From contig NZ_CP019980.1 of the NCBI RefSeq assembly GCF_002982115.1, forward strand, positions 2,798,001 to 2,862,000: 64,000 nt of DNA, written 5' to 3'. The position numbers and the translations under genes were made by a program. How positions within the stretch are numbered: position 1 is the stretch's first letter; every line of letters starts with the position of its first letter. Below are positions 3,493-64,000 of this stretch, piece by piece. This DNA is from Lysinibacillus sphaericus (GTDB taxonomy: Bacteria; Bacillota; Bacilli; Bacillales_A; Planococcaceae). Under the pieces are notes generated by a model, which worked only from the letters and a program-made list of their open reading frames with translations, ran no database searches and was not told the DNA's origin.

Positions 3493-3876
3493 ATGGCAGT
3501 AAGTGATATTGTACAAGAATTTGAGGACGAGCAAGGAAATGTCTTTTATAAAATGAAAACACACGATATCGAGGTTCAAGCAATGCATTCTGCTGGCTTA
3601 GCACCCGTTATTACCTACTGGATTGGCGAAAAAGATATTACGGAAGATATTCGAAATCTACGTTTTAGCCCAAGACCTCCATCTAGTTATATTCAAGATT
3701 ATGAAGAATTTCAATCAATGCTCTATGCAAAAGAGCAACGTGCTATTAACGAACTCTATGAAAAAATGAGTATTAAACCTAAAAACATGACAACAGGGAA
3801 ACAAATTTTGTGGAGTTTCTTTGTGATGATATTGGCGATGCTCCCTTTACTCGTTGCCATTTGGTGGTTAAAATAA
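3493..3876 (+). CDS. Hypothetical protein with C-terminal membrane anchor
   Basis: I do not recognise this family. The 127-residue product has a soluble acidic N-terminal part (about 1-100), rich in charged residues and including an FSPRPPSSYIQDYEEF stretch. One strongly hydrophobic segment at the extreme C-terminus (about 103-125, ILWSFFVMILAMLPLLVAIW) ends in WLK. That arrangement suggests a tail-anchored protein with its N-terminal domain in the cytoplasm. The start is ATG 3493 with AGAGGTGAT eight bases upstream. It stands alone between divergent lysE and the proBA leader. A TATAAT at 3431-3436 could be its -10 box. Confidence 0.7.
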   Translation: MAVSDIVQEFEDEQGNVFYKMKTHDIEVQAMHSAGLAPVITYWIGEKDITEDIRNLRFSPRPPSSYIQDYEEFQSMLYAKEQRAINELYEKMSIKPKNMTTGKQILWSFFVMILAMLPLLVAIWWLK

Positions 3877-4054
3877 TGGTCACTTCCCAGTATTCAACTA
3901 ATTATTGGCGGTTGCAAACCTCTGCAATTTATCCTTATTTATACACAATTTTTCTATTCAGCTTGACAGACACAAAGAAGTAGTGCATTCTTTATTCAAT
4001 TAGTAGTACGAAAGAGAACTTGTGGTTATACTCTATGCCATAATCTCTCCAAAA

Positions 4055-4301
4055 TACATGATACACATAAAACGAACGAAGATTAGTATGTAGAAACTAA
4101 TTGGTAAGAGAGCGATGTCCATCGGCTGTAAGACATTGTACAAAAAAGACTACAGAACCTACTTCGTGAAACGTCCTAGCCAAACTAGGCGCAGTCTCAA
4201 GCGTTATGAGGAAAGTGGAATATCTCAAGATATTCAATGTAGGTGGTACCACGGAAAGCAACCTTTTCGTCCTAGTTTTTAGGACGAAAAGGTTTTTTTT
4301 A
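4055..4301 (+). promoter_or_regulatory. T-box riboswitch leader, probably proline-specific
   Basis: Transcription-attenuating leader upstream of proB. The T-box sequence TGTAGGTGGTACCACGG at 4238-4254 is the conserved antiterminator element that pairs with uncharged tRNA. It is followed by a strong terminator: CCTTTTCGTCCTA (4262-4274), a four-to-five-base loop, its exact complement (4280-4292) and eight Ts. Stem I-like structure precedes it, including a CCTAG/CTAGG stem near 4175-4189. A CCT triplet in GAACCTA (4158-4160) is a plausible proline specifier, but I could not fold the stem to prove it. The downstream genes make Pro-tRNA the expected ligand. Confidence 0.88.
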
Positions 4302-8783: not shown

Positions 8784-8888
8784 CGCGGGTATTCCTATGT
8801 TTTTCGCGGGTAAATGCTCTCATTTCGCGGGTAAACTCTCCACTTCCGCGGGTAAAAGCACTCATTCCGCGGGTATTTAACCTACTAC
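8784..8888. repeat. 21-bp-phased CGCGGGTA array (five copies)
   Basis: The 8-mer CGCGGGTA starts at 8784, 8805, 8826, 8847 and 8868, exactly 21 bases apart each time. The 13-base gaps differ but share a CTC-ATT flavour in the middle copies. On the minus strand it reads TACCCGCG, the same core as the arrays at 28373 and 60451. It sits between the kinase terminator and the stop codon of the leftward acetyltransferase gene, so it would be in that gene's 3' untranslated region. No coding function is indicated. Confidence 0.9.
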
Positions 8889-28372: not shown

Positions 28373-28443
28373 TACCCGCGAATTGAGGTATTTTATCCGC
28401 GTTTTTTTAAACTTTACCCGCGAAACAACTACTTTTACCCGCG
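28373..28443. repeat. 21-bp-phased TAYCCGCG array (four copies)
   Basis: TACCCGCG at 28373, TATCCGCG at 28394, TACCCGCG at 28415 and TACCCGCG at 28436, exactly 21 bases apart. Each is preceded by a T-run. The array ends nine bases from the fhs stop and lies before the fhs terminator, so it is part of the fhs 3' untranslated region, in the opposite orientation to that transcript. Confidence 0.9.
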
Positions 28444-57364: not shown

Positions 57365-59170
57365 ATGGAAGTATTACCATTAAGGAAAGATGTTGCAGTG
57401 GAAGAAACGTGGAATTTACAGGATTTACTTGAAAATGACGCTGATTTTGAACCTGCATTAGCTCAGTTTGTAGAAGATGCAGTAAAATTTGAAAGCACCT
57501 ATAAGGGGAGCATTACGGATGCGCAAAAGGTAATTGAGGTACTGACAGCCTTTGAAGCATTACAAGTAGGCATTATCCCTCTGGGAACCTATGCGAGCTT
57601 AAATATACAGGCTGATCGTACGGATGACGTTGCACAAATGCGCGCAGCAAAATTTAGCACGGCGATTGGAAAAATTAGCAGTTCCATCGCATTTGTGAAT
57701 AGCGAATTGCTTGCATTAGACGAAACCATTTTAGAGCAAGCTGCAGCGTCAAGTCCCCTATATAATCGCTATATCACACAACTGTTAAAGCAAAAGCCTC
57801 ATCAACTACATCCTGAAGTAGAAAAAACGCTTGCTGCTTTGCGTTCTACATTCGACGCACCTTATGAAATTTATAACACGACAAAGCTCGTGGATATGCA
57901 TTTCGGGGAGTTTGAGGCAAATGGCAAAAATCATCCACTTAGCTATGTGTTATTCGAAAATGATTGGGAACTTGAAAGCGATCCAACGATACGTCGAGCA
58001 GCATTCAATGCCTTTTCTAACAAGCTTCGTGAGTATCAACATACTACGGCAAAAGTATATAACACGCATATCCAGCAAGAGAAAACAATCGCCGATTTAC
58101 GGGGCTTCGACTCTGTCATTGACTTTTTATTATTTGACCAAGATGTCGATCGTTCGCTTTATAATCGTCAAATTGACCTTATTACAAAAGAGCTTGCCCC
58201 ACATATGCGTCGTTATGCCAAGCTTGTACAAAAAGCGCATGGCTTAGATAAAATGACGTTTGCTGATTTAAAAATATCACTCGATCCAAGCTATGATCCA
58301 AAATTAACAATGGCAGAAGCAAAAGATTATGTTGAAAAATCATTAGCTGTAATGGGTAAAGATTATGAGGAAATGATTGAAAGGGCGTTCAACGAGCGCT
58401 GGATTGATTACGCACCAAATAAAGGAAAATCTACAGGCGCATTTTGCTCAAGTCCCTACGGTAGCCATCCGTACATTTTAATGTCATGGAATGAGCGTAT
58501 GAACGAGGTATTCACACTAATCCATGAGCTTGGTCACGCCGGTCATTTTGTTAATGCACATGCACATCAATCGTATTTGAATAATCGCCCTTCCCTCTAC
58601 TTTATCGAGGCACCATCTACAATGAATGAAATGCTATTAGCAAACTATTTATTGACACATAATGATGATAAACGCTTTAAACGTTGGGTTATATCAAACA
58701 TCGTATCGAAAACATATTATCATAACTTCGTCACACATTTACTAGAGGCAGCATACCAACGTAAAGTATATGAACTAGTGGACGCTGGCGAATCAGTGAA
58801 TGCTACAGTATTGAATCAATTAAAACGTACTGTTTTAGAAGATTTCTGGGGCGATACTGTCCATATCCTAGAAGGCGCAGAATTAACATGGATGCGTCAG
58901 CCTCATTACTATATGGGCTTGTATCCATACACATATAGTGCTGGTTTAACGATTTCTACACAAGTATCGCAACGTATTTTAAAAGAAGGTAGTACGGCTG
59001 TAGATGAATGGTTAAAAGTACTGCAAGCAGGTGGCACTAAATCGCCTGTAGAGCTTGCCCAAATGGCAGGTGTTGATGTCACGACAGATCAACCGCTGCG
59101 AGATACAATTGCTTACATCGGTCAGTTAATTGACGAGCTTGAAAGACTAACAGCAGAGATTGAAGTCTAA
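57365..59170 (+). CDS. pepF: Oligoendopeptidase F
   Basis: Cytoplasmic zinc metallopeptidase of the M3B family, 601 residues, the normal length; degrades peptides of about 7-17 residues. Zinc motif FTLIHELGHAGHF (HExxH, about residue 385) with the third ligand Glu in FIEAPSTMNEMLLANYL about 25 residues further. MRQPHYYMGLYPYTYSAGL near the C-terminus is family-typical, with Tyr and His for substrate binding. The start is ATG 57365 behind AAAGGGGTG. Monocistronic with its own terminator. Confidence 0.96.
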   Translation: MEVLPLRKDVAVEETWNLQDLLENDADFEPALAQFVEDAVKFESTYKGSITDAQKVIEVLTAFEALQVGIIPLGTYASLNIQADRTDDVAQMRAAKFSTAIGKISSSIAFVNSELLALDETILEQAAASSPLYNRYITQLLKQKPHQLHPEVEKTLAALRSTFDAPYEIYNTTKLVDMHFGEFEANGKNHPLSYVLFENDWELESDPTIRRAAFNAFSNKLREYQHTTAKVYNTHIQQEKTIADLRGFDSVIDFLLFDQDVDRSLYNRQIDLITKELAPHMRRYAKLVQKAHGLDKMTFADLKISLDPSYDPKLTMAEAKDYVEKSLAVMGKDYEEMIERAFNERWIDYAPNKGKSTGAFCSSPYGSHPYILMSWNERMNEVFTLIHELGHAGHFVNAHAHQSYLNNRPSLYFIEAPSTMNEMLLANYLLTHNDDKRFKRWVISNIVSKTYYHNFVTHLLEAAYQRKVYELVDAGESVNATVLNQLKRTVLEDFWGDTVHILEGAELTWMRQPHYYMGLYPYTYSAGLTISTQVSQRILKEGSTAVDEWLKVLQAGGTKSPVELAQMAGVDVTTDQPLRDTIAYIGQLIDELERLTAEIEV

Positions 59171-59177
59171 TAGTATT

Positions 59178-59217
59178 ACCATCTACGCTCAATTCAAGTG
59201 CGTAGATGGTTTTCTTT
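59178..59217 (+). terminator. Terminator after pepF
   Basis: ACCATCTACGC (59178-59188) pairs exactly with GCGTAGATGGT (59200-59210), then TTTCTTTTTT. Confidence 0.92.
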
Positions 59218-59394
59218 TTTTAGTTCTAAGCTAGAAAATACATACATATAATAGAATTAGGGCGTCCCTCTAATTTTTTGATATTTCAAAATAGATAATC
59301 ATTTTTCTTCATACAAAAGTACCGTTATTATTAAGTGTACGCAATTTATTTAGCAAAAATCGACTAACAATTTTCAAAGGAAGTGTTTCTAATT

Positions 59395-60378
59395 ATGGTA
59401 AAACGTAATGATCCATGCCCATGCGGTAGCGGCAAAAAATACAAAAAATGTTGTGAAGGTAAACAGCAAGTTACAGTTGAAGCTGTAGCAATCGAAGAAC
59501 TAGAGCGTGTACTACAAACATTCTATTTAGAATATCCAGAACGCAAAGATGTTCGTGCTTATATCGAGCATGTTGGCACATGGCAGCCTAAATTAGAGAG
59601 CGTACTACAACGTGAGCTTATTGAAGCGATTGCGTTAGACGACTTCTTCTTCCATCAAGAGCCATCTATTTGGAAAGGGTATTTAAAGAAAACGAAGAAA
59701 AAGACGGTAAGACCTTCAACTTTAAAAGTACTTGAAGGCTGGTCACAACCTACACTCTTTATTGGTACGGTAACTGTTGTAGAGGAAAAATATTTTAAAG
59801 CTAGTCATGTTCTTTCAAATGAAGAAATTTATATCCGTCGCGAAAATGATAAGCCAATTCCTGAGGGAATGCATGTCTTTGCGTTTATCCTGCCAGATGG
59901 CACGAAGCAGGAAGCGCATTATCTAGCGGTATCAACGCTTATATTCTTCCCACATGACCATGAACAAGTATTTGTGAAGTTAAAAGAAAACTTTGAGGCT
60001 TCGAATAAGAAAGTTCAAACATTCTTAAAAGAAGATCATCTAACATTCTGGGAGCTACTTGTGTCTAACGGCTACAAGGGCGAAGAATTCACAAACTTCG
60101 AGAACGGTGTTATTACGCAAGTCAAGGAATTCCTTGAACAAAATGAGCGTGAAACAGCTCCGATGCTTGAACTATTAGAGGATTACTTAATCGAAGGACA
60201 ACCCTCTGCACGTAAAGAAGCGGCCATCGCAGCAGGTGCTATTCGCTACGGTCAGGAAAAAGAGCTATTTGAATCACTTTCTATGACAGTCAAAGAAATT
60301 GCAGCGACTTTCGATATTTCCCCTTCCTCTTTAACAAAATACTACCAAGATCTAAGTCAATACGCTTCAACAAAATAA
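59395..60378 (+). CDS. SEC-C metal-binding domain protein
   Basis: Protein of 327 residues. A SEC-C zinc motif at the N-terminus (VKRNDPCPCGSGKKYKKCC, residues 2-20), as on the tail of SecA. The long middle part is not recognised (about 25-290). The last 35 residues look like a helix-turn-helix (MTVKEIAATFDISPSSLTKYYQDLSQYA). Similar SEC-C plus helix-turn-helix proteins exist in Bacillales with unknown role. The start is ATG 59395 behind AAAGGAAGTG. It is followed by a strong terminator and the largest repeat array. Confidence 0.85.
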   Translation: MVKRNDPCPCGSGKKYKKCCEGKQQVTVEAVAIEELERVLQTFYLEYPERKDVRAYIEHVGTWQPKLESVLQRELIEAIALDDFFFHQEPSIWKGYLKKTKKKTVRPSTLKVLEGWSQPTLFIGTVTVVEEKYFKASHVLSNEEIYIRRENDKPIPEGMHVFAFILPDGTKQEAHYLAVSTLIFFPHDHEQVFVKLKENFEASNKKVQTFLKEDHLTFWELLVSNGYKGEEFTNFENGVITQVKEFLEQNERETAPMLELLEDYLIEGQPSARKEAAIAAGAIRYGQEKELFESLSMTVKEIAATFDISPSSLTKYYQDLSQYASTK

Positions 60379-60384
60379 AAAACA

Positions 60385-60429
60385 AAAACAAGTGTTAGAT
60401 TGAGTTACAATCAATCTAACACTTGTTTT
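60385..60429. terminator. Terminator after SEC-C gene, GTGTTAGATTG family
   Basis: A perfect 19-base inverted repeat: AAAACAAGTGTTAGATTGA and its exact complement around seven bases. The core matches the hairpins at 1771 and 48353. Confidence 0.92.
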
Positions 60430-60450
60430 GCTAAAGCGGTATTTGCCTTC

Positions 60451-60863
60451 TATCCGCGATTTCTTCTGTTTTACCCGCGTTTGATGGACCTCTATCCGCG
60501 ATTTACACTGTTTTACCCGCGTTTGATGGACTTCTATCCGCGATTTACACTGTTTTACCCGCGTTTGATGGACTTCTATCCGCGATTTACACTGTTTTAC
60601 CCGCGTTTGATGGACTTCTATCCGCGATTTACACTGTTTTACCCGCGTTTGGTGGACTTCTATCCGCGATTTACACTGTTTTACCCGCGTTTGGTGGGCT
60701 TCTATCCGCGATTTACACTGTTTTACCCGCGTTTGGTGGACTTCTATCCGCGATTTACACTGTTTTACCCGCGTTTGGTGGGCTTCTATCCGCGATTTAC
60801 ACTGTTTTACCCGCGTTTGGTGGACTTCTATCCGCGATTTACACTGTTTTACCCGCGTTTCAA
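60451..60863. repeat. 21-bp-phased TAYCCGCG array (twenty copies)
   Basis: Twenty 8-mers start every 21 bases from 60451 to 60850 without a break: TATCCGCG and TACCCGCG alternate, so the full unit is 42 bases (ten units). The 13-base gaps also alternate: ATTTACACTGTTT after TATCCGCG, and TTTGRTGGRCTTC after TACCCGCG. Left units carry GATGGA, right ones mix GGTGGA and GGTGGG. Because 21 is a multiple of 3, several frames stay open on both strands; these are not genes. It lies between two strong terminators. Confidence 0.95.
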
Positions 60864-60875
60864 AAAATAAATAGA

Positions 60876-60926
60876 AAAAAGCTACGTTCGTTATCTGCAT
60901 AATAACAGATAACAAGGTAGCTTTTT
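60876..60926. terminator. Terminator right of the array
   Basis: AAAAAGCTAC and GTAGCTTTTT arms enclose an inner GTTATCTG/CAGATAAC stem. It ends the leftward zinc-finger transcript and can block entry into the array. Confidence 0.85.
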
Positions 60927-61058
60927 CTATGGTAACCAACCAATTTTATTATTTCCGAACATATAGTTATTTATGCAAGAAAAGCACTACATATGCTTAA
61001 TTTCATGCATAAAAATTTCTTATTGGATATTTTTATGTGAGTTCTCACAATCGGCGCC

Positions 61059-61259
61059 TTATTTGCTATACACTTTCATTAGCTCCTCCCCTAAAAACTG
61101 CAGTCGCTCTCCTACTGTACACGCCTCAATACAAAAACGATGGGCCCCTTGTTTCCCACGCTCTTTCCGCAGTTGCTTAATGACTAAGCAATCAGCACAG
61201 TACATATCATGTAGTTCATCAATATCTTTCATAACCGTCACTTTATCCATTAAGAACAT
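61059..61259 (-). CDS. Small zinc-finger protein (YpeQ-like)
   Basis: Protein of up to 66 residues with the CADC ... HRFCIEAC spacing of the C2HCIx2C zinc-finger group (Cys about 21 and 24, His 40, Cys 43 and 47). The ending GERLQFLGEELMK is typical. It is divergent from an RNase-H-fold gene, as ypeQ and ypeP are neighbours in B. subtilis as I recall. Start ATG 61259 is close to GAAGGGGG; ATG 61250 is also possible. Function unknown. Confidence 0.8.
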   Translation of the reverse strand: MFLMDKVTVMKDIDELHDMYCADCLVIKQLRKERGKQGAHRFCIEACTVGERLQFLGEELMKVYSK

Positions 61260-61433
61260 TCGCCCCCTTCACGTCCAAATTTCATGTCTTTCTATTATGA
61301 AGTCAACATTGTGTTCAAGCAACTATTTTGTTCATCCTAATTTAACAAAAATTGTTTCAATCATTTGGAGGTTGTCAAACAGCCCCATTGCTGTACAATA
61401 AAATGGAAGTCTAATCGCAAAGTAGGGATTTTC

Positions 61434-61826
61434 ATGTTAGAGGTCTATATCGATGCGGCAAGTGCAGGTAATCCTGGCCCTAGCGGCATTGGCATTTTTA
61501 TTAAAGGAGAAGGCCATCACGTACAAATTAGTGAGTACATCGGTCATACAAATAATCATATCGCCGAATTCACCGCATTAGTACGGGGCTTAGAAGAAGC
61601 ACAAAAACTAGGTACAAGCATTGTCTCCGTCCGTTCCGATTCAAAAGTGGTCGTTACATCTATAGAAAAAGAATATGTCAAAAACGAAGAATTTAAACCT
61701 TTTCTTGAACAAGCATTAACACTTGCAAATAATTTTGATTTATTTTTCATCAAATGGATTCCAGATGGGCAAAATAAAGCAGCAGATGCACTAGCACGCA
61801 ACGCTATTCAAAAAGAAAAAAATTAA
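61434..61826 (+). CDS. RNase H-fold protein (YpeP-like)
   Basis: Ribonuclease HI-like protein of 130 residues. Active-site acidic residues: Asp in VYIDAASAGNPGPSGIGIFI (about 6), Glu in NHIAEFTALVRGLEEA (about 46), Asp in VRSDSKVVV (about 69) and Asp in KAADALARNAI (about 121). All four DEDD positions are kept, so RNase H activity is possible. ATG 61434 is chosen for the fold start; the GTAGGG site upstream is moderate. It is divergent from the YpeQ-like gene. Confidence 0.85.
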   Translation: MLEVYIDAASAGNPGPSGIGIFIKGEGHHVQISEYIGHTNNHIAEFTALVRGLEEAQKLGTSIVSVRSDSKVVVTSIEKEYVKNEEFKPFLEQALTLANNFDLFFIKWIPDGQNKAADALARNAIQKEKN

Positions 61827-61830
61827 AAAA

Positions 61831-61868
61831 ATAGGGGGACCGCCCGCTAAAACAAGCAGTCCCCTATT
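61831..61868. terminator. Terminator with GGGGAC/GTCCCC arms
   Basis: ATAGGGGGAC pairs with GTCCCCTAT; the inner GCTAAAACAAGC is shared with the hairpins after the other immunity-like genes (62437-62465, 63029-63060). It contains the stop codon of the next gene. Confidence 0.75.
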
Positions 61869-62382
61869 CGCTTATTTTTATTTCATTGTACGTTTCTAAA
61901 AGTCCTCGATAAGAACTTTCTTCAGAGAACCAAAGTTTTTCATTTTTACAAAACTCCACAAAATTAAAAAATTCCTTTTTCACTTCATTTTTAAAAAGTT
62001 CGATAGGAACTAGAAAGCGTTGGTGACAATCTAGTTGTATTTCATAAAACTCACCAACTTCTTGAATTACCGTATCATTATAGGAAGCATTATCTAAAAA
62101 AACAATTCCATGACTTCTTCCATCATAGTGATTATTAAAAATATAAATTAAATCACTCCACGTTTCTAATAAACTTTCCGTTAATTGTTCTTCACCAAAA
62201 ATCACCACATTATTATAAATTAAGCTCACAAAGCCACATAAGTAATCACCTTCGTTTTCTTCTAATATCTTCTGTGCCATTTCCACAGCTAATGGATTGG
62301 TAATAGGAAAACTTTCGATTTTATAAACAGGAGCAGTTATATCTTCTTCTCCTATAAAAGTCTCGATTTTTAGTTTATTCAT
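61864..62382 (-). CDS. Putative immunity protein, paralogue 1
   Basis: Protein of 172 residues; family not recognised by name. It is a close homologue of the two genes to its right. Conserved blocks: KIETFIGEEDITAPVYKIES, NPLAVEMAQKILEENEGDYLCGFVSLIYN, VIFGEEQLTESLLETWSDLIYIFNNHYDGR, then FFNFVEFCKNEKLWF. Strongly acidic and Tyr/Phe-rich, as is usual for toxin antidotes. The start is ATG 62382. The immunity role is inferred from tandem location after a toxin C-terminus. Confidence 0.7.
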   Translation of the reverse strand: MNKLKIETFIGEEDITAPVYKIESFPITNPLAVEMAQKILEENEGDYLCGFVSLIYNNVVIFGEEQLTESLLETWSDLIYIFNNHYDGRSHGIVFLDNASYNDTVIQEVGEFYEIQLDCHQRFLVPIELFKNEVKKEFFNFVEFCKNEKLWFSEESSYRGLLETYNEIKISE

Positions 62383-62436
62383 ACAAAGCACCACACTTTT
62401 TGAAAACGAGTCTCATGTTAAAAGTCTTAAATCAGA

Positions 62437-62465
62437 GGAACTGCTCATTGGAAATAAGCAGTCCC
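62437..62465 (-). terminator. Hairpin after paralogue 2
   Basis: GGAACTGCT ... AGCAGTCCC, an imperfect member of the same hairpin family, just after the end of the broken immunity gene. Confidence 0.5.
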
Positions 62466-62484
62466 TTGTCTGTATTTTTACCTT

Positions 62485-63012
62485 TCAACTTCTTTCATCT
62501 TCATCATAAAGTAATTCATCATACGTTTCTAAAATTCCACGATATAAACTTTCTTCGGCGAACTGTAATTTTTCATTCTTACAAAACTCCACAAAATTAA
62601 GAAATTCCTTCTTTACCTCATTCCGGAATAGCTCTATAGGTACGAGAAAACGCTGTAAATGATTTAGTTGAATTTCTTAAAAATGGCCAATTTCTTGAAC
62701 TAATGCATTGCCCTTGTAATTATCTAAAAAAGTAATATCAATACTTCTTCCATCATATCTATGGTTTAAAATATAGATTAAATCACACCACGTATCTAAT
62801 AAATCTCCCGTTAATTGTTCTTCACCAAAAATCACCACATTATTATAAATTAAGCTCACAAAGCCACATAAGTAATCGCCCTCGTTTTCTTCTAATATCT
62901 TCTGTGCCTTTTCCACTGCTAATGGATTGGTAATAGAAAAACTTTCGATTTTATAAACAGGAGCATTTAAATCTTCTTCCCCTATAAATGTTTCGATTTT
63001 TAGTTTATTCAT
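62485..63012 (-). pseudogene. Putative immunity gene, paralogue 2, nonsense-mutated
   Basis: The frame starts at ATG 63012 and matches paralogue 1 for about 110 residues, up to VQEIGHF. A TAA (62677-62679) then replaces the expected Tyr codon. Beyond it the same frame stays open and keeps homology to the end (EIQLNHLQRFLVPIELFRNEV, then KNEKLQFAEESLYRGILETYDEL), closing with TGA at 62485. So one base change split an otherwise intact 175-codon gene. It is recent, since no other damage is seen. Confidence 0.88.
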
Positions 63013-63028
63013 AGAACACCCTAGTTAT

Positions 63029-63060
63029 GGGGACTGCTCGCTAAAAACAAGCAGTCTCCC
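63029..63060 (-). terminator. Hairpin after paralogue 3
   Basis: GGGGACTGCT and AGCAGTCTCCC arms around a CGCTAAAAACA loop; same family as 61831. Confidence 0.65.
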
Positions 63061-63084
63061 TAATAAATTTTAGATTTTAGCCTT

Positions 63085-63609
63085 CTAGTTTTTATCTTCT
63101 TCATTTTGTATTAATTCATCATACGTTTCTAATAGCGCTTGATATAAACTCACTTCTGCAAACTGTAGTTTTTCATTTTTACAAAACTCCACAAATTTGA
63201 AAAATTCCTTTTTCAGTTCATTTTTGAATGATTCTTTTGGCAAGAGGAATTGGCTTGAACTATTAAGTTCAATTTGATAAAACTGCCCTATTTCTTTAAT
63301 TACTGTATCATCATAAGAAGCATTATCTAAAAAAACTATCCCATGCCTTCTCCCATCATAATGATTATCAAAAATATAAATTAAATCACACCACGTATCT
63401 AATAAGTCTTCAGTTAATTGCTCTTCTCCAAAAATAACAATATCATTATAAATTATGGATACATAGCCACTTAAGTAATCTCCTTCATTTTCTTTTAAAA
63501 TAGTCTGTGCCATTTCAACAGCTAAAGGATTTGTAATAGAGATATTTTTAATAGTTGTATCTGAAACATTATCCCGACTAATAAATGTCTCAATTATTGG
63601 TTTGTACAT
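63085..63609 (-). CDS. Putative immunity protein, paralogue 3
   Basis: Protein of 174 residues, the copy next to the toxin and hence the best candidate for cognate immunity. It shares NPLAVEMAQTILKENEGDYLSGYVSIIYNDIVIFGEEQL and DLIYIFDNHYDGRRHGIVFLDNASYDDTVI with paralogue 1, but the first 20 residues differ (PIIETFISRDNVSDTTIKN). The start is ATG 63609 behind GAAGGTGA. It follows the toxin stop codon by 22 bases, so the two are one transcript. Confidence 0.75.
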   Translation of the reverse strand: MYKPIIETFISRDNVSDTTIKNISITNPLAVEMAQTILKENEGDYLSGYVSIIYNDIVIFGEEQLTEDLLDTWCDLIYIFDNHYDGRRHGIVFLDNASYDDTVIKEIGQFYQIELNSSSQFLLPKESFKNELKKEFFKFVEFCKNEKLQFAEVSLYQALLETYDELIQNEEDKN

Positions 63610-63631: not shown

Positions 63632-64000
63632 TTATTTACCAACTGGATAAGCAGAATTTATATGCCCAGTCCTACTAATCCTAACTCTATATTCAATTCC
63701 GTTTACTTTCGCCTGCACTTTTATCCCTTCCTTTTTAATTAGCTGTCTAGATATCTCAGATTTATTATTATTAATTACCGTTGTGACAATATTTTTAATA
63801 TCATTTACAGATAAATCTGGATCAAAAAACGACTTTCCTTCATTTCCAGTCCAATAATTTGGATGATGATTTTCTAGAATATGTCTCATTTTAGCTTTCG
63901 TAAAGTAAACCTTTTTACCACCGCCTACATCCAAAGTGATATCTGTAAAGTTGGCTACAGCCTTTTTCGCCGCATCTTTTGATTTACTAAAAAATGTACG
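63632..64000 (-). CDS. Polymorphic toxin C-terminal domain, EndoU-like nuclease (partial)
   Basis: The last 122 residues of a larger protein whose start lies beyond the right edge; the frame is open from 64000 to the TAA at 63632. The C-terminal region MRHILENHHPNYWTGNEGKS, a following DIKNIVTTVI helix, VQAKVNGIEYRVRISRTGHI and the closing NSAYPVGK fit the EndoU/BECR ribonuclease pattern: early His pair, late YP. The AAKKAVANFTDITLDVGGGKK linker precedes it. An internal ATG or GTG start would be unusual. A secreted, contact-type or LXG-type toxin is likely. EndoU assignment is by pattern, not by search. Confidence 0.7.
   Translation of the reverse strand, partial: RTFFSKSKDAAKKAVANFTDITLDVGGGKKVYFTKAKMRHILENHHPNYWTGNEGKSFFDPDLSVNDIKNIVTTVINNNKSEISRQLIKKEGIKVQAKVNGIEYRVRISRTGHINSAYPVGK

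What the first reader, a model, noticed from the sequence alone, without database searches (positions are those of the whole stretch)
60451..60863. Twenty-copy array of TAYCCGCG at exact 21-bp spacing
Seen directly: 8-mers start at 60451 and every 21 bases to 60850, with TATCCGCG and TACCCGCG alternating and the gaps alternating too (42-bp higher unit). 21 bp is two helical turns of B-DNA, so all cores face the same side. The array lies between two strong terminators and does not look coding. I do not know a named family with this layout. Inference: a platform for a cooperative DNA-binding or nucleoid protein, or a selfish repeat.
Basis: partly seen in the sequence, partly recalled or inferred. 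Interest (0 to 1): 0.8.

Follow-up and report, generated by a model that had tools for sequence, protein, structure and literature searches.

The report
Phased 21-bp DNA repeat arrays
Bacteria of the genus Lysinibacillus and some relatives carry arrays of a short DNA word repeated every 21 bases (two turns of the helix), mostly near the ends of genes; the word differs between related species while the 21-base step stays, and in some genomes it points one way relative to chromosome copying, which suggests landing strips for an unknown DNA-binding protein.

Summary
In detail: 20 copies of TAYCCGCG start at 60451 and every 21 bp to 60850, in 42-bp dimers. It is one of a dispersed family. The window holds three arrays, which contain all 29 TAYCCGCG of the window (1.5 expected). 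The genome has 227 core pairs at 21 bp (reversed-pattern control 0) at 26 or more sites. Unit number differs between species at the same site (20, 6, 4). In relatives fetched by flank alone the core differs at 3 of 294 positions, spacers at 36 of 545. (1) The core has dialects: sister genomes G021 and G027 use TAYCGGCG at 21 bp, also at some sites where the window's genome has TAYCCGCG; 28 of 32 genus genomes have TATCCRTC. (2) In G009, G021 and G027 the core lies nearly always on the lagging strand, including 21 of 21 sampled arrays between convergent genes; the window's own genome is mixed. Coding and structured RNA are not supported. Best reading: helically phased platforms near gene 3' ends for an unidentified sequence-specific DNA-binding protein. 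No protein was identified, and a selfish repeat is not excluded. Closest known kind: staphylococcal STAR elements.

The parts
60451..60857 (+). 20-unit array, TAYCCGCG every 21 bp, 42-bp dimer repeat
8784..8875 (-). second array, 5 units at 21 bp; 4 units at the orthologous site of L. mangiferihumi (L066)
28373..28443 (+). third array, 4 units at 21 bp, spacers unlike those of the other two
60385..60429 (.). inverted repeat between the SEC-C gene and the array, terminator-like
   Evidence: scanner reports it on the minus strand; seen
60872..60929 (.). inverted repeat with T run on the other side of the array, terminator-like
   Evidence: seen directly; not reported by the scanner
59383..60378 (+). 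SEC-C motif protein gene, left neighbour, ends towards the array
   Evidence: PF02810
61059..61259 (-). zinc-finger protein gene (66 aa), right neighbour, ends towards the array (convergent pair)
   Evidence: PF10782

Best explanation
The array is one of dozens of dispersed, helically phased direct-repeat platforms near gene 3' ends. An unidentified sequence-specific DNA-binding protein recognises the core. Neighbouring molecules sit on the same face of the helix two turns apart and bind cooperatively, building a nucleoprotein tract that marks or organises the chromosome rather than switching one gene. Copy number changes by gain or loss of whole 21- or 42-bp units. When the protein's specificity shifts, the cores follow to a new dialect while the step is kept. 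Shown: phased core, core better conserved than spacers, dialects, avoidance of divergent gene pairs, replication polarity in several genomes. Inferred: the protein, cooperativity, the nucleoprotein tract and its chromosome-level role.
For: Core against spacer: where relatives were fetched by flanking gene or flanking DNA alone (4 sites, 8 alignments), core 3 of 294 positions differ, the degenerate Y 3 of 42, spacer 36 of 545, flank 40 of 987; core against spacer p 1e-4. A larger set (9 alignments) gives core 2 of 301, Y 2 of 43, spacer 50 of 557, flank 75 of 2519, but 8 of its 9 relatives had been found through the core itself. The same core recurs in arrays with unrelated spacers. Step: 757 of 839 adjacent steps of at most 25 bp are exactly 21; 19 bp 47, 20 bp 23, 22 bp 1. 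Dialects at the same step: TAYCGGCG pairs 78 in G021 and 114 in G027, 0 in G000; TAYCCGCG pairs 227 in G000, 2 in G021, 0 in G027; three orthologous sites carry a changed core. Arrays avoid divergent gene pairs: 3 of 84 against 87 of 319 ordinary gaps, p 3e-7. Core on the lagging strand: G009 18 of 18 sites, G027 28 of 31 listed sites, G021 19 of 20 arrays; sampled convergent arrays alone 9/9, 6/6 and 6/6.
Against: No binding protein was found, nor looked for by gene content. Steps of 19 and 20 bp are tolerated. Cores do mutate: in G029 two of 11 units at one site and one unit at each of two other sites. Up to three dialects coexist in one genome (G025 186/249/28), and 16 of the 19 genomes with TAYCCGCG also have TATCCRTC, which needs several proteins or a loose one. 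At the window site only 3 of 5 units in G021 and 2 of 7 in G027 are exact TATCGGCG. The window's own genome shows no clear strand bias (16 of 26 sites leading). 25 of 30 loci read at the window site have no array, and G021 and G027 have none at the L238 site. Requiring cores in the query hides about half of core changes: about 10 were still expected at the spacer rate, 3 were seen. The core-free lag scan is weak evidence: at its strict setting 21 leads only in G027 and the window. No dyad covariation of position 3 with 9.
Confidence: 0.45

Rival explanations
1. Selfish or passively expanding satellite: arrays grow by replication slippage or unequal exchange and are seeded at new sites by copying; the core is kept because the copying machinery needs it, not because the cell does.
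For: Whole-unit gain and loss between species; long arrays made of near-identical dimers; patchy spread, 33 of 250 genomes and 8 of 19 genera sampled from the order have a TAYCCGCG pair; sites without array in relatives. Strand bias could come from strand-biased insertion or expansion.
Against: Short arrays with diverged spacers keep their cores; a change of core across a genome, seen at three orthologous sites, is hard for passive decay. A transposase-like partner or target duplications were not searched for.
Confidence: 0.3
2. Polar chromosome-arm marks read by a moving machine (SpoIIIE/FtsK-type translocase, replication fork or recombination nuclease).
For: Core on the lagging strand in 18/18 (G009) and 28/31 (G027) sites and 19/20 (G021) arrays, flipping with GC skew, and in 21/21 sampled arrays between convergent genes.
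Against: The window's genome is mixed (16 of 26 leading); only tens of arrays per genome; in G001 two dialects point opposite ways (15/16 lagging and 4/4 leading among the stretches read). Spacers are purine-rich on the leading strand (0.70 against 0.53 in flanks in G000, 0.61 against 0.52 in G021), so some polarity may be mutational.
Confidence: 0.12
3. An RNA-level element: array transcripts bind a protein or fold.
For: Arrays often start within about 100 bases of a gene end; some fold better than shuffles, z -4.95 for 8784-8875; in G009, G021 and G027 the core is against the gene strand in 24 of 26 same-direction pairs.
Against: In the TAYCCGCG set orientation is not tied to gene strand (31 against 24 same-direction pairs); convergent arrays follow replication; the real order of spacers folds little better than permuted orders (mean quantile 0.34-0.53 by group, 0.5 being chance; G021/G027 0.345, se 0.069, is borderline); no Rfam match on the array (58000-63000 searched).
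Confidence: 0.05
4. A coding heptapeptide repeat.
For: 21 bp is seven codons; 156- and 190-aa frames cross the window array; distinct units with a stop in the TAY-CCG-CGN frame are 53 against 77 expected from column shuffles; the minus frame scores above the Pfam cut-off for one family, Flagellin_C (25.6 against 23, no single stretch passing).
Against: Steps of 19 and 20 bp (70) outnumber frame-keeping 18 and 24 bp (6); the best frame is open in 88 of 124 arrays; the plus frame has no Pfam match, and the 15 other families of the minus frame are below cut-off and mostly coiled-coil, as any heptad repeat would give.
Confidence: 0.02

Closest known systems
STAR elements (Staphylococcus aureus repeat; Purves et al. 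2012, PMC3532100: abstract, background and discussion read)
   Same: Short GC-rich direct-repeat core, dispersed intergenic sites, spacers particular to each locus, whole-unit copy-number change, function and spreading mechanism unknown.
   Different: STAR core is 14 bp, T(G/A/T)TGTTG(G/T)GGCCC(C/A), with at least 40 bp of recurring sequence between cores. Here the core is 8 bp with 13-bp spacers at a helical step, it has species dialects, avoids divergent gene pairs, and is polarised by replication in some genomes.
REP/BIME elements of enterobacteria (from memory)
   Same: Found at gene 3' ends and between convergent or same-direction genes rather than divergent ones.
   Different: REPs are palindromic and come in inverted pairs; these are direct repeats without a required dyad.
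KOPS/SRS and other architecture-imparting 8-mers (start of the abstracts of PMC2680272 and PMC5993296 seen in the listing; other details from memory)
   Same: Short words whose orientation follows the replication arm.
   Different: Those are dispersed single sites; here the words stand in 21-bp arrays at tens of loci, and in the window's genome they are not clearly polarised.
Iteron and centromere arrays of plasmids (from memory)
   Same: Direct repeats at about two helical turns, bound cooperatively.
   Different: Here dozens of chromosomal arrays; neighbours were not tested for rep or par genes. One DNA search with the window array found no plasmid match.

Membership tests
STAR elements | 14-bp consensus T(G/A/T)TGTTG(G/T)GGCCC(C/A) | tested here: not met
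   Core is TAYCCGCG or dialects TAYCGGCG, TATCCRTC; consensus read
STAR elements | at least 40 bp between cores | tested here: not met
   13 bp between cores; 757 of 839 adjacent steps are 21 bp
STAR elements | dispersed intergenic loci with locus-specific spacers and variable copy number | tested here: met
REP/BIME | palindromic units, usually in inverted orientation | tested here: not met
   units of an array share one orientation; no covariation of position 3 with 9, p 0.10, 0.45, 0.35; best of all column pairs, 12 with 18, z 3.8 and 4.8, uncorrected for relatedness and number of pairs
KOPS/SRS-type polar marks | orientation set by replication arm | tested here: inconclusive
   met in G009, G021, G027; not clear in the window's genome, 16 of 26 leading
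KOPS/SRS-type polar marks | read by a DNA translocase | not testable with these tools
   needs experiment
Coding tandem repeat | reading frame kept through the array | tested here: not met
   70 steps of 19-20 bp; every frame has stops in at least 36 of 124 arrays
CRISPR | long repeats (about 23-50 bp, from memory) with unique spacers | tested here: not met
   8-bp core; spacers of the window array repeat as dimers. cas genes were not searched
Cooperative DNA-binding platform | a protein binds the core | not testable with these tools
   inferred from core conservation and dialects

The most novel reading that the evidence does not exclude
A chromosome-wide marking system unlike described bacterial repeats: helically phased arrays whose recognition word is replaced wholesale between sister species (a protein and its sites co-evolving, as satellites and their binders do in eukaryotes) and whose orientation tells the cell which way replication runs.
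Probability: 0.25. Interest if true: 0.88.

Novelty: new variant of a known kind. Interest (0 to 1): 0.7.

Why it matters
If the platform reading is right, a DNA-organising protein of these bacteria is undescribed, and the dialect pairs (such as G000 and G021) give natural specificity swaps with which to find it. If the arrays are selfish instead, they show that a repeat can keep a helical step while changing its word, a useful model for how bacterial satellites live. The 2012 STAR paper states that no function was known for those elements; a phased, polarised relative makes the question testable.

Tried and rejected
Coding repeat: rejected. Folded RNA or single-strand hairpin: some single arrays looked good (core-strand z -2.15, -4.95, -2.23, -0.37, -1.63), and shuffling letters inside spacers gave group mean z from -0.10 to -1.77, but that control also destroys the bases next to the core; permuting whole spacers gave no clear signal, so dropped. 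Dyad-symmetric operator: no covariation where tested. Rfam: three hits far below gathering, none on the array, 58000-63000 searched. Phage or plasmid origin: 3 stretches in the viral collection, two with near-identical units and L283 with the same core, not pursued; no plasmid match with one query, low-complexity filter on. Hits in other phyla were set aside by record title before the context and unit counts; those printed mostly have near-identical spacers (L045 and L048 less so), several were never printed. Sporosarcina luteola L024 was left out too, as an ordinary tandem repeat. Literature: searches (0 papers; core letters, 855 papers, 40 listed; 11; 2,543, 12 listed; 200, 10 listed) showed no description of this family in what was listed; that is an open-access library only. 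Not pursued: gene-content search for the protein, core-free scans outside the genus.

Known flaws in my counts: one array of the window's genome is present twice (L219 and L239), so 25 rows are 24 arrays (14 leading); two more sites, 3.678 and 4.474 Mb, were not fetched but are leading by their strand, hence 16 of 26. ORF-based context used 70-80 aa minima and misses short genes (the window array is really between convergent genes). One search printed minus-strand loci unreversed; one search corrects it. GC-skew boundaries come from sampled stretches; for G021 only from the stretches around its arrays. In one search eight of nine relatives had been fetched through the core; one search repeats the test without that. 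One flank (L228 against G013) is partly misaligned and gives 16 of the 40 flank differences. In some searches the L226 and L228 sites could not be placed in G021 and G027.

Full report
Observation. The array is as described: 20 TAYCCGCG cores from 60451 to 60857 at exactly 21 bp with a 42-bp dimer repeat. It is one of three in the window; all 29 TAYCCGCG of the window lie in them, none alone, against 1.47 expected. It lies between a SEC-C gene and a small zinc-finger gene that end towards each other, between two terminator-like inverted repeats, one reported by the scanner and one seen by eye.

A genome-wide family. The pair TAYCCGCG-N13-TAYCCGCG occurs 87 + 140 times in the window's 4.68-Mb genome and 0 times with the pattern read backwards. 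Listed places make at least 26 sites (one search lists the first 100 pairs, up to 3.68 Mb; one search lists only pairs with G after the first core). The genus is inferred to be Lysinibacillus: the site in L. mangiferihumi (L126) equals that of genome G013. A scan of genome contigs for three units, which stopped at 120 stretches, found arrays in Sporosarcina, Planococcus, Planomicrobium, Neobacillus, Robertmurraya, Siminovitchia, Halobacillus and other Bacillus. In a sample of the order, 33 of 250 genomes have the pair; there the reversed control has 2-6 hits in each of four genomes of genus g7 and 0 elsewhere.

Anatomy. From 124 rows of arrays (Bacillales-titled loci plus the window's genome, one array twice), 757 of 839 adjacent steps up to 25 bp are 21; 47 are 19, 23 are 20, 1 is 22. 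Beyond the core the strongest columns are the two bases before it (A or T, 0.6-0.8 bits) and the second after it (A, 0.6 bits); the rest have 0.03-0.36 bits. Of 102 arrays in such loci, 84 have a gene called on both sides: 31 and 24 lie between same-direction genes with the core on or against the gene strand, 26 between convergent and 3 between divergent genes; ordinary gaps over 100 bp are divergent in 87 of 319 (p 3e-7). In the fetched arrays of G000, G021, G009 and G027 divergent pairs number 1 of 25 rows, 3 of 23, 1 of 17 and 0 of 11.

Evolution at orthologous sites. Of 30 genus loci read at the window array's site, five have an array: the window's genome 20 units, G013 6 and G029 4 with TAYCCGCG (one unit mutated in each of the two), G021 5 and G027 7 with TATCGGCG-type cores (3 and 2 exact). 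In the other 25 I saw none. In nine alignments at eight sites, core positions apart from Y differ in 2 of 301, spacers in 50 of 557, flanks in 75 of 2519, but eight of the nine relatives had been fetched through the core. I therefore repeated the test on relatives fetched by flanking gene or DNA: at four sites in G013 and G029 the core differs in 3 of 294, Y in 3 of 42, spacers in 36 of 545, flanks in 40 of 987 (core against spacer p 1e-4). At half the spacer rate, which allows for cores required in the query, about 10 core changes were expected. Cores are not inviolate: G029 has two mutated units of 11 at the L226 site. Units come and go whole (5 against 4, 5 against 6, 5 against 7; 5 against 11).

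Dialects. A scan that assumes no core, over 400 kb each of G027, G009 and G000, is suggestive only. At its strict setting 21 bp has 2 places in G027, 0 in G009 and 1 in G000 (tied with 19). At the looser setting 21 is the commonest lag of 10-60 in each: 3, 3 and 2 places, of which one in G009 comes from the extra locus L140 and one each in G027 and G000 looks coding. It showed other cores at the same step, which pattern searches then counted. In the 32 genus genomes TAYCCGCG pairs occur in 19, TATCCRTC in 28, TAYCGGCG in 9, and each of the 32 has at least one; reversed controls are 0. The window's genome has 227/0/0, G029 136/0/0, G013 283/1/0, G021 2/0/78, G027 0/0/114. G021 and G027 are sisters (96/92) inside the five-genome clade (100/100) on a tree of the SEC-C gene. 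A second orthologous site has TACCCGCG x7 in G000 and TATCGGCG or TACCGGCG in G021 (left flank adjoining, right flank over 1 kb further on); a third has TACCCGCG in G000 and TTCCGCG in G027. Two other sites are empty in these genomes: the second L236 array in G027 and L238 in both. Against a simple one-protein story, 16 of the 19 genomes with TAYCCGCG also have TATCCRTC.

Polarity. With replication arms taken from GC skew, TATCCRTC of G009 is on the lagging strand at 18 of 18 sites; TAYCGGCG at 28 of 31 sites of G027 (from 100 of its 114 pairs) and 19 of 20 arrays of three or more units read in G021 (22 of 23 with two or more). In the stretches read from G001, TATCCRTC is lagging in 15 of 16 arrays and TAYCCGCG leading in 4 of 4. 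Sampled arrays between convergent genes, where transcription gives no single direction, are lagging in 9 of 9 in G021, 6 of 6 in G009 and 6 of 6 in G027. Same-direction genes in these three genomes nearly all run with replication, so those arrays lie against the gene strand in 24 of 26. The window's own genome is mixed: 14 of 24 arrays read and 16 of 26 sites are leading. Its spacers are purine-rich on the leading strand (0.70 against 0.53 in flanks), so part of the polarity may be composition.

Reading. Core kept better than spacers, a step near two helical turns, the same core in unrelated spacers, and a change of core between sister species point to recognition in trans. Convergent arrays that follow replication point to DNA rather than RNA. 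I hold a cooperative protein platform most likely (0.45), a selfish satellite next (0.3). The protein, the cooperativity and any benefit to the cell are inferred.

Known kinds. STAR elements are the nearest (PMC3532100: abstract, background and discussion read): a similar way of life, different core, spacing and orientation behaviour. Two defining features fail, so it is not filed there. REP/BIME, CRISPR and coding repeats fail a tested feature; KOPS-type marks are unsettled (membership table).

Noticed in passing
window 61864-63609: Three neighbouring minus-strand ORFs (176, 111 and 174 aa) look by eye like paralogues of one small protein, beside an open ORF at 63632-64000; possibly an immunity-gene cluster behind a larger protein. 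No search done.
   Followed up: no
window 60385-60429; L226 around 2868-2906: The terminator-like inverted repeat (AGTGTTAGATTG...CAATCTAACACT) beside the window array also stands beside the L226 array, and that stretch of the query matched dozens of places in each of four relatives: a dispersed terminator family of its own.
   Followed up: no
L283 (viral contig IMGVR_UViG_2890906962_000004), about 3800-4200: Two adjacent arrays with TATCCGCGATGTACGA units at about 21 bp in a contig called viral, with much of the spacer conserved.
   Followed up: no
genus g7 genomes G054, G121, G141, G166: The reversed control pattern has 2-6 hits at 21 bp in these genomes only, perhaps another dialect.
   Followed up: no
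L026, L056, L058, L063, L069, L074, L116 (Sporosarcina MAG): Arrays there have four or five units whose last spacer is alike across sites (CTATAACATATTTTTAACAAA-type), so position in the array seems to matter; it looks like a defined element of about 105 bp.
   Followed up: partly
L140 2793-2860 (G009): A further core, TATCGAAAA, at 21-bp steps.
   Followed up: no
L161 about 1600-2260 (G027): About 30 units (by eye) of ATTCCGCG type at 21 bp where the window's genome has TACCCGCG.
   Followed up: partly
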